DNA of 64,000 nt, taken from NCBI GenBank assembly GCA_018436095.1, contig JAHDMJ010000013.1, positions 62,001 to 126,000 on the forward strand, written 5' to 3'. The stretch comes from Clostridia bacterium (lineage in GTDB: Bacteria > Bacillota > Peptococcia > DRI-13 > UBA5745). A model generated the notes under the pieces. That model saw nothing but the letters and a program-made list of their open reading frames with translations. It did not search any database and was not told where the DNA came from. Below, piece by piece: positions 5,826 to 44,441 of this stretch. Numbering within the stretch: position 1 is the stretch's first letter; each line of letters starts with the position of its first letter. The position numbers were made by a program, and so were the translations under genes.

Positions 5826-6779
5826 TTGCTCAAATACATTGTTAAGCGGTTATTAATGGTTATACCGGTTTTATTGGGCGTAACCATAATCATTTTTACT
5901 ATTCTATATTTTGCCCCCGGCGACCCGGCTGTTATGGCGCTGGGCGAAGGAACCCCCGAGGCGGCTCTGGAGGCATACCGGGTGGAAATGGGGATTAATG
6001 GGACTTATATAGAACGGTTGGTACGCTATGTGGGAAACGTAGCCAGAGGAGACCTTGGACTTTCTTTTCAGTCCCGCAAGCCTGTGGTCAGTGAATTGAT
6101 GCAGCGTATTCCTCAAACCCTGACCATGGCCACCTGGGGCATTATTCTGGCCACCGTGCTGGGAGTGTTCCTGGGGATTGTATCGGCAACAAGGCAGTAT
6201 TCTTTTTGGGATACAATCGCTACCATTGGGGCGTTGTTTGGCGTTTCCATGCCGATGTTTTGGCAAGGTCTGATGCTGATCCTGATCTTTTCCGTGCACT
6301 TTAATTTCTTTCCCGCCTCAGGTTTTTCCAGTGTGAAGCATATGATCATGCCTATTTCTGCCCTGGGAATTCAAATATCGGCCAACATTATGCGTTCCAC
6401 CAGATCCAGTATGCTGGATGTGCTTCGCCAGGATTATATCCGGACCGCTCGCTCAAAAGGGCAAAAAGAATCCAGGGTCATTATGGGGCATGCGCTGAAA
6501 AACGCTATGATACCAGTGGTTACGGTTATTGGGGTGCAGTTTAGCAAAATGCTGGCAGGTTCTGTCATTATCGAATCAATCTTTTCGATTCCGGGAATTG
6601 GGAAATACATGATTGATGCAATCAATGCTCGAAACTATGCCGCAGTACAGGGATCGGTTCTGCTGATTGCTTTTACCGGATGTATTCTCAACCTGGCGGT
6701 CGACATTATGTATACCTTTATTGATCCGCGGCTGAAAACAATTTTTGAAACTAAACGGCACCGAAAGAAGGTGGCCTAA
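5826..6779 (+). CDS. ABC transporter permease, DppB/OppB type
   Basis: 317 aa, TTG start with AAAGGAGGA 7 bp upstream. The N-terminal helix (LKYIVKRLLMVIPVLLGV) is typical of DppB/OppB proteins, and the coupling segment DYIRTARSKG of the binding-protein-dependent permease family lies near residue 205. Six membrane segments are expected from the hydrophobic stretches. It pairs with the DppC-like permease that starts one base after its stop codon, forming the translocation pore of the importer. Confidence 0.92.
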   Translation: MLKYIVKRLLMVIPVLLGVTIIIFTILYFAPGDPAVMALGEGTPEAALEAYRVEMGINGTYIERLVRYVGNVARGDLGLSFQSRKPVVSELMQRIPQTLTMATWGIILATVLGVFLGIVSATRQYSFWDTIATIGALFGVSMPMFWQGLMLILIFSVHFNFFPASGFSSVKHMIMPISALGIQISANIMRSTRSSMLDVLRQDYIRTARSKGQKESRVIMGHALKNAMIPVVTVIGVQFSKMLAGSVIIESIFSIPGIGKYMIDAINARNYAAVQGSVLLIAFTGCILNLAVDIMYTFIDPRLKTIFETKRHRKKVA

Positions 6780-20523: not shown

Positions 20524-20855
20524 TGACCCCTTTGTTGGAAAATGTGCAAAATTGCAGGTTTGTCACTCTCTTTGCTCAAAAAGGAGCAAAATTGCAAGTT
20601 TGTTAAGTCAAATCCCCTGCTTTATGGCCGTTTTTAGCCCTAAATAGACTAAAAGCCGGATTTGTACAGATGAAAGCTCTTACAAACCTGCAATTTTGCA
20701 CAAAACCGCCGCCGCCAGAGCACAAACCTGCAATTTTGCACAAAACCGCCGTCGCTAGAGTACAAACCTGCAATTTTGCACAATTGAGGGTCACTGCCGT
20801 GCGGGGTGCCGCCGCCAGGGGTCACTGCCGTGCGGGGTGCCGCCGCCAGGGGTCA
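20524..20855. repeat. Intergenic inverted-repeat element, copy A
   Basis: Outer ends are TGACCCC (20524-20530) and GGGGTCA (20849-20855). Inside, two left arms (GTGCAAAATTGCAGGTTTGT at 20544-20563, GAGCAAAATTGCAAGTTTGT at 20584-20603) are 40 bp apart. Three right arms in inverse orientation (20682-20701, 20722-20741, 20762-20781) are also exactly 40 bp apart. A core of about 78 bp (20604-20681), bounded by CAAATCC and GGATTTG, lies between them. There is no convincing protein. Related copies occur at 32.6, 34.0 and 44.0 kb. The rest of 20279-21127 shows no gene; at 21005-21115 I see only unremarkable sequence leading to the next ribosome site. Confidence 0.8.
20791..20852. repeat. 31-bp tandem repeat, two copies
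   Basis: TCACTGCCGTGCGGGGTGCC followed by GCCGCCAGGGG is repeated exactly at 20791 and 20822, and a third partial copy starts at 20853 (TCACTCC). It forms the right flank of repeat element A. Confidence 0.85.
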
Positions 20856-21127
20856 CTCCAAACCACTCCAGCCGGCCGCTCCAATCTATCGGCAGGTCAA
20901 AGCAGGCGTCTGGTTTTGCAAAACTTGTTGACTGGGAAACAAGATTGTGTTATAACTGTAACATACTCAAACTTGTTTCCGGGGATACGAGATTGTCTGC
21001 CAGGATTTAAATTGTCTTATGAATAGCAGACTGCCTTCCCGAAACACAAACTGTCTCCCCGGATAGTAAACTGGTATCACCGAAGCTGCCTTAATAGTAA
21101 GCTGCATGAAGCAAGGAGGGGCTCACA

Positions 21128-32549: not shown

Positions 32550-32890
32550 TGACCCCAGGGGGTAGAGCCCCCATGGCGGAGTAGTGCCCAATGGCGAGGT
32601 AGAGCCGGCCTTCTGTGCAAATCCGGGCGATTCCGCGCTGGGGGCAGTGAATGTGCAAATTTTTCGTTTGTATGCGGTTTTGGGCAGCCGCTTGTGCAAT
32701 TTTTTCGTTTGTGAGTGATTTGCAACCCCTCTCGGAAGGAATTTAAGCCCATTTTAGGTCAAATTTGTTCAATTCTTTCGTTTATGTATGGATTCCCTCT
32801 CTGCATTTCACACACAAACGCAATTTTTGCTCACCCGGCCCCGCCGATTTTCACACAAACGCAATTTTTGCACAGGCGGGAGATCACTGC
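32550..32890. repeat. Intergenic inverted-repeat element, copy B
   Basis: The left end is TGACCCC (32550-32556). Left arms GTGCAAATTTTTCGTTTGT (32653-32671) and a near-identical copy (32694-32712) are 41 bp apart; right arms ACAAACGCAATTTTTGCTC (32814-32832) and ...GCAC (32855-32873) are also 41 bp apart and inverted. A degenerate extra arm lies at 32767-32785. The core at 32743-32769 resembles that of copy D. The right end is less clear (ATCACTGCC, 32883-32891). The 509-bp gap between the AmmeMemoRadiSam genes holds this element and no convincing gene. Confidence 0.75.
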
Positions 32891-43935: not shown

Positions 43936-44004
43936 CGAGACGGCAGGGAAGAAGAAGGCTGCTGCCACCAACGGGAACGTTGTCACCGGTGAGACAATGA
44001 TTTT

Positions 44005-44144
44005 GAACAAAATTGCAAGTTTGTTTACATAATTATAGCGTTTTGAGCAAAATTGCAAGTTTGTAGTATGTGATTTGGCCTGAGAATAGGGTTTTTACCC
44101 CATTTTCGGGCCAAATTTGTTTCGAGGCCGAGATTTAGGGGTCA
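44005..44144. repeat. Intergenic repeat element, copy D (half element)
   Basis: Two left-type arms, GAACAAAATTGCAAGTTTGT (44005-44024) and GAGCAAAATTGCAAGTTTGT (44045-44064), are 40 bp apart; the second is identical over all 20 bases to an arm of copy A 23 kb away. A core (44071-44120) with an ATTTGGCC/GGCCAAAT stem follows, sharing TTTA-CCCATTTT and CAAATTTGTT with copy B. GGGGTCA (44138-44144) marks the right end. No inverted right arms are present. Confidence 0.75.
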
Positions 44145-44170
44145 ACCCGTGACAACTTCTTTCCTAAATC

Positions 44171-44254
44171 TTACTGCCACCACCTGGCTGCTTACTGCCA
44201 TCACCTGGCTGCTTACTTCCACCACCTTGCTGCTTACTGCCATCACCTGGCTGC
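44171..44254. repeat. Four tandem 21-bp units
   Basis: TTACTGCCAYCACCTGGCTGC-type units run at 44171, 44192, 44213 and 44234; units 2 and 4 are identical and unit 3 differs by a few bases. It lies between copy D and the substrate-binding protein gene. Both strands are open through it, but the peptides (GSKQPGDGSK on the minus strand) look like by-products of the repeat. The rest of 43936-44441 shows no gene. Confidence 0.85.
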
Positions 44255-44441
44255 CTTTTCCCGGCTCCGCCAGCTCCTTCCCCGCCGCCGCCTGGCTCCG
44301 CTTCGCTCCTCCACGGCCACCGCCCGCCGGGACAACAACCTTCGCTAATATTTTCCTGGTGCAGGCACAGTTTTTCCCCGCCGGAATAAACTGGCCAATG
44401 TAAGATTGAAAACCCAAGTAAGGCGAAGGGGGAATGTTTAA

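What the first reader, a model, noticed from the sequence alone, without database searches (positions are those of the whole stretch)
20524..20855. Intergenic element A: 20-bp arms on a 40-bp period, arranged as an inverted repeat around a core
Two left arms (starts 20544, 20584) and three right arms (starts 20682, 20722, 20762) are each spaced exactly 40 bp. Left arm 1 and the right arms are perfect reverse complements over 20 bp. Because spacing is equal on both sides, a transcript could pair both arm sets at once, as alternating 20-bp duplexes and 20-nt internal loops. TGACCCC and GGGGTCA at the outer ends look like short terminal inverted repeats. No transposase, tRNA or CRISPR explanation fits. 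I do not recognise it as a named family.
Basis: partly seen in the sequence, partly recalled or inferred. Interest (0 to 1): 0.75.

Follow-up and report, generated by a model that had tools for sequence, protein, structure and literature searches.

The report
Helix-phased inverted repeat arrays between genes
The repeat is real and belongs to a large family of short DNA elements scattered between the genes of this clostridial genome, in which 21-letter sites sit at whole-turn spacings along the DNA helix, so they probably hold docking sites for an unknown protein that pairs the two sides, most likely to move the element.

Summary
The arm occurs 445 times in the genome (0 in the reversed control) and 150 times in one congener. 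In other relatives it is at chance level, and a GTDB scan found only one MAG.

The arms (TGWGCAAAATTGCARGTTTGT) are sharply conserved, while spacers and cores drift. Arms repeat every 40-41 bp. Distances across the centre cluster one helical turn apart (87, 97, 107, 117 ... 170; best period 10.48 bp). Of 69 own elements, none falls between 0.4 and 0.9 turn. A second arm family, with another sequence and a 61.5-bp period, shows the same phase.

Left and right arms do not covary, differ between the two ends, and the core has no conserved RNA fold. This speaks against the RNA-duplex reading and for sites bound on double-stranded DNA by a protein assembly that bridges the two arrays.

Elements come and go between two species at orthologous sites, so I favour a MITE-like mobile element with multi-site ends, moved in trans. 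Weak points: no transposase and no target-site duplication found. A chromosome-looping or regulatory array is the main rival.

The parts
20543..20563 (+). outer left arm, TGTGCAAAATTGCAGGTTTGT
20583..20603 (+). inner left arm (GCAAAATTGCAAGTTTGT at 20586)
20604..20681 (.). core, 78 bp; arm-to-arm distance 96 bp (the commonest class, 95-98)
20682..20702 (-). inner right arm
20722..20742 (-). middle right arm
20762..20782 (-). outer right arm
44004..44064 (+). second array of the same arm family: two left arms 40 bp apart and a related core, no right arms
32652..32712 (+). related element with another arm sequence: two left arms (TGTGCAAWTTTTTCGTTTGT) 41 bp apart
32812..32874 (-). right arms of that element (ACACAAACGCAATTTTTGCWCA) 41 bp apart; not complementary to its left arms

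Best explanation
The thing is one member of a family of about 200-400 bp non-coding elements dispersed between genes. Each has, as a rule, one to four copies of a 21-bp site on either side of a core, pointing inwards. SHOWN: the sites are conserved while spacers and cores vary; neighbours lie 40-41 bp apart; the distance across the core changes in helical turns; the two ends carry slightly different sites; elements are present in one species and absent at the orthologous place in the other. INFERRED: each site binds a subunit of a sequence-specific double-strand DNA-binding protein. All sites face roughly the same side of the helix, so left and right arrays can be bridged across the short, stiff core into one paired-end complex. 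The protein is most likely a transposase or recombinase acting in trans on a non-autonomous (MITE-like) element whose ends hold several sites, as the ends of IS21, Tn7 and Mu do.
For: 445 arms in the own genome at up to 2 mismatches, 0 in the reversed control. Arm profile sharp, spacers near flat over 314 arms. Arm mismatch rate 0.24-0.60 of the non-arm rate in every divergence bin, 403 of 405 pairs binned. 158 of 175 same-strand neighbour distances are 40 or 41 bp. Centre distances: best period 10.48 bp, R 0.82, n=92, 0 of 2000 uniform draws as good; one value per length class per core cluster, n=19, R 0.82, 0 of 2000; cluster medians n=10, R 0.88, 1 of 2000. Second family with 61-62 bp lags is in the same phase. 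End-specific arm bases in two core clusters. Empty orthologous sites in G004. IS21 ends carry two direct repeats each, bound by an IstA tetramer (PMC10122671, passages).
Against: No partner found: one rve hit (an IS3-like gene) without arms nearby; three IstB-model hits (two over the cut-off), none with arms in its locus; no Y1 transposase in the own genome; other transposase families were not searched. No target-site duplication at the arm edges in 56 own or 25 G004 elements. Arms are conserved in place more than a dead insertion should be. In 2 of 5 assessable orthologous places G004 holds an element of another type in the same gap, which could mean old shared sites rather than fresh insertion.
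Confidence: 0.5

Rival explanations
1. Architectural or regulatory arrays: the sites bind a lineage-specific nucleoid or regulatory protein that loops or wraps the DNA in place, as BIMEs are said to bind host proteins; spread is secondary.
For: In-place constraint on arms, helical phase, intergenic position with 18 convergent, 33 co-directional and 5 divergent of 56 doubly flanked arrays, shared gaps with G004 in 2 of 5 assessable places. Each arm is a near-palindrome (CAAAnTTGCAAnTTTG, by reading), as expected of a dimer site.
Against: High turnover between species about 86-88% alike in the compared stretches; arm sequence, number and type differ in the same gap; family found in two species only. 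The binder is unknown.
Confidence: 0.33
2. RNA element: transcripts pair the left and right arm sets into a long interrupted hairpin (terminator, stabiliser or RNase III substrate).
For: The window copy folds better than shuffles (z -5.3); bias to gene 3' ends.
Against: No left-right covariation in 64 elements; no conserved core fold; related element with non-complementary arms; helical-turn steps in the core have no reason in RNA; this copy lies between divergent genes.
Confidence: 0.08
3. Single-stranded hairpin mobile element of the REP/REPIN or IS200/IS605 kind, moved by a Y1 transposase.
For: Short, dispersed, intergenic, palindromic; G004 has one Y1 gene.
Against: No Y1 gene in the own genome, no left-right pairing constraint, double-strand phase.
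Confidence: 0.05
4. Chance, low complexity or assembly artefact.
For: Several contigs end inside or near arrays.
Against: 445 against 0 control; seen independently in a second assembly.
Confidence: 0.01

Closest known systems
IS21-family transposon ends (L1/L2, R1/R2 multiple repeats bound by IstA)
   Same: Several ~20-bp direct repeats at each end, inverted between the ends, starting TG; the paper states repeats separated by 23 bp and wrapping of the ends on a tetramer (PMC10122671, passages read); here the gaps are about 20 bp.
   Different: No IstA/IstB with these ends found; no short target duplication; up to four sites per side; core under about 170 bp and helically phased.
REP/BIME and REPIN
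   Same: Hundreds of copies, intergenic, arrays in alternating orientation, biased to gene 3' ends.
   Different: Arms are not hairpin REPs with a GTAG/CGTC tag; no RAYT (Y1) gene in the genome; arm sets of the two sides show no pairing constraint. REP definitions seen only in abstracts.
Bacterial MITEs (definition recalled)
   Same: Short, non-coding, inverted ends, dispersed, empty sites in a relative.
   Different: No target-site duplication at arm edges; ends are variable-number arrays rather than one fixed TIR.
Phage attachment sites with arm-type sites, such as lambda attP (recalled)
   Same: Inverted arm sites around a core.
   Different: About a hundred copies between genes; no integrase gene looked for or seen alongside.

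Membership tests
MITE | terminal inverted repeats | tested here: met
MITE | target-site duplication | tested here: not met
   56 own and 25 G004 elements, no excess at the arm edges
MITE | presence/absence at orthologous sites | tested here: met
   L143 gap B, L145-2, L169-1 absent in G004
MITE | full-length partner with the same ends | tested here: inconclusive
   no IstB or rve partner with arms; other transposase families not searched; assembly broken at arrays
IS21 | IstA/IstB genes with matching ends | tested here: not met
IS21 | multiple direct repeats at both ends | tested here: met
   definition from PMC10122671
REP/REPIN | RAYT (Y1 transposase) in the genome | tested here: not met
   no hit in G000; one hit in G004, none in G001-G003
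REP/REPIN | single-strand hairpin with GTAG or CGTC tag | tested here: not met
   arm consensus TGWGCAAAATTGCARGTTTGT has no such tag, by reading
Rfam RNA family | covariance-model match | tested here: not met
   only a tRNA in the window
CRISPR array | head-to-tail repeats with unique spacers and cas genes | tested here: not met
   arrays are inverted about a core and many spacers are alike between copies; cas genes not searched

The most novel reading that the evidence does not exclude
A genus-specific DNA-looping system: several arm families, each with its own sequence and period (40.5 and 61.5 bp) but the same helical phase, are scattered over the chromosome and bound by matching double-strand DNA-binding proteins (domesticated transposases or nucleoid proteins) that pair the two arrays of each element; the sites are kept by selection while the elements around them turn over.
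Probability: 0.27. Interest if true: 0.85.

Novelty: new variant of a known kind. Interest (0 to 1): 0.62.

Why it matters
Dispersed bacterial repeats are usually read as hairpins. Here the spacing itself, in whole helical turns over nearly a hundred elements and two arm families, points to protein complexes on double-stranded DNA. That gives a testable handle on what binds such repeats, and on whether they are mobile parasites, chromosome-folding sites, or both.

Tried and rejected
Rejected: RNA duplex; TGACCCC terminal repeats; IS21 partner; RAYT partner; viral, plasmid or phage carriers (0 matches). TSD search negative. Literature: searches gave no paper on this family among the listings seen; that is all the basis for saying I found none in print. 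Of papers I read only passages of PMC10122671; the others were seen as listings with the start of the abstract.

Weak points of counts: fetched own loci are a sample (about 70 arrays; listings were cut), so the number of arms is known but not the number of elements. One search pairs include contig ends (L044, L059, L072, L084), some of which may be assembly overlaps. In one search about five of 29 cores (L002-L005 and the window) look mis-oriented when aligned, which should weaken rather than make the end difference. G004 loci L099-L123 were chosen by a gap of 69-99, so their distances are limited to about 87-117 by choice. The second-family list of 12 holds one place twice (L101 and L171 are the same place): 11 distinct. 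Some centre distances (129, 136-138, 159-160) may be a shorter class plus one decayed arm. I allowed up to 4 mismatches when finding arms and a score cut-off, so badly decayed arms are missed.

Full report
CHECK. Chance is excluded: 8 hits in the window against 0.26 expected. In the whole genome there are 212 + 233 hits at up to 2 mismatches and 0 + 0 for the pattern read backwards.

DISTRIBUTION. Among 60 relatives only G004, of the same genus, stands out (74 + 76 hits); the others have 7 hits or fewer in all. IMG/VR: 0 for two patterns; plasmids and phages: no match.

ANATOMY. I fetched about 70 arrays of the own genome and read their arms. Arms point inwards on both sides, one to four per side as a rule. 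Over 314 arms the 21-bp motif TGWGCAAAATTGCARGTTTGT is sharp and the spacers are nearly flat. 158 of 175 same-strand neighbour distances are 40 or 41 bp. Centre distances of 69 own elements: 63 (1), 87 (3), 95-98 (27), 106-108 (5), 116-119 (8), 125 (1), 129 (2), 136-138 (6), 159-160 (2), 169-171 (14). Read as phase on a 10.5-bp helix, all lie within 0.1 turn before to 0.4 turn after a whole number of turns, and none between 0.4 and 0.9. A period scan with own and G004 elements (n = 92) peaks at 10.48 bp with R 0.82; 0 of 2000 uniform draws reach it. Because copies are related I also used one value per length class in each core cluster (19 values, R 0.82, 0 of 2000) and cluster medians (10 values, R 0.88, 1 of 2000).

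INDEPENDENT REPLICATE. Another arm family (CACAAAAATCGARGTTGTG) in the same genome repeats mostly every 61-62 bp and has centre distances 65-66, 75-77, 126 and 138. Its 11 distinct centres (12 rows, one place twice) all lie at 0 to 0.4 turn. 40.5 and 61.5 bp are both a whole number of turns less 0.14. A third form lies in this window at 32652-32874, with left arms TGTGCAAWTTTTTCGTTTGT and right arms that are not their complement.

RNA OR DNA. If the arms paired as RNA or single-stranded DNA, left and right arms of one element should match at the variable positions. Over 64 elements they match no more often than after permuting elements, and at position 11 less often (0.361 against 0.500, sd 0.042). 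At least one perfectly complementary pair occurs in 17 of 64 elements, against 21.9 expected by permutation. The window copy, with perfect arms, is thus not typical. A 19-sequence core alignment gives a consensus fold of 4 pairs. The good fold of this copy (z -5.3) follows from its inverted arms. When cores are oriented, arms at the two ends differ: position 11 is G in 54 of 72 on one side and in 27 of 72 on the other (p 1e-5), and in a second core cluster position 6 is A in 23 of 27 on one side and T in 17 of 17 on the other (p 9e-9); in the third cluster tested (10 elements) no position differs at p below 0.05. Arms are not independent, so these p-values are too strong.

CONSTRAINT AND MOVEMENT. 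Arm positions change less than the rest in every divergence bin of 403 pairs, ratio 0.24 to 0.60. Four own stretches (eight elements) and the window element were compared with G004 (read). Of nine places, three are empty in G004 (L143 gap B: 281 bp against 13 bp between aligned blocks; L145-2: 853 against 80; L169-1: 669 against 117), two hold an element of the other arm type in the same gap (L143 gap A, L144-2), and four cannot be judged (window, L144-1, L145-1: flanks not colinear; L169-2: G004 contigs end). A second, biased set of locus pairs shows the same mixture, with differences in both directions. No target-site duplication was found.

CONTEXT. 68 of 71 arrays do not overlap a gene predicted by my simple codon score. 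Of 56 with both neighbours called, 18 lie between convergent, 33 between co-directional and 5 between divergent genes. This copy lies between a MarR-type regulator gene and a molybdenum hydroxylase gene, one of the divergent cases.

PARTNER. IstB, rve and Y1 models give no gene with arms beside it in the own genome. Other transposase families were not searched, and the assembly breaks in arrays, so a partner may be missing.

JUDGEMENT. What is well supported is a dispersed family of site arrays in helical register on double-stranded DNA. What is inferred is that a protein binds them, that it bridges the two arrays, and that it is a transposase acting on a non-autonomous element; the in-place constraint and the missing duplication leave a looping or regulatory role as a serious rival. 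It works like the multi-site ends of IS21, Tn7 or Mu; it is not shown to belong to any of them.

Noticed in passing
window 32652-32874: A second array element with a different arm sequence, 41-bp period and non-complementary left and right arms.
   Followed up: partly
L004:1825-2042, L069:2163-2379, L075:460-677, also L080, L083, L096: Another arm family (CACAAAAATCGARGTTGTG), 61-62 bp period, two arms each side, same helical phase; some copies lie next to the first family's arrays.
   Followed up: partly
L055 about 5870-6150: A small element with ACTGAAAAAGTCGC ends sits inside an arm of the first family, with what looks like a 9-bp repeat (CTACAAACC) on both sides; similar junctions (ACAAACC then GAGGGCACTGAAAAAG) at L011 and, less exactly, L004 and L044.
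   Followed up: partly
L077:1625 and 2227, L062:1648 and 2223, L007:1326 and 1884: An outer inverted repeat CCTGAGTTCCCGCAAAATTAMACCATA encloses some arrays, among them those with a centre distance of 170; no clear target duplication by eye.
   Followed up: partly
contig ends of G000, among them C1, C5, C10, C12, C13, C14, C20, C21, C24: Many contigs of the assembly end within or close to arrays.
   Followed up: no
window 20788-20849 and 44160-44260: Short tandem repeats with CACTGCC or TTACTGCC beside arrays; similar ones flank other copies.
   Followed up: no
window 20921-20996: Two 28-bp direct repeats 48 bp apart, partly inverted, upstream of the molybdenum hydroxylase gene.
   Followed up: no
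L178 (G004:C33:5200-5900): In G004 an element of the single-pair type carries about five left arms 41 bp apart, so arrays also grow there.
   Followed up: no
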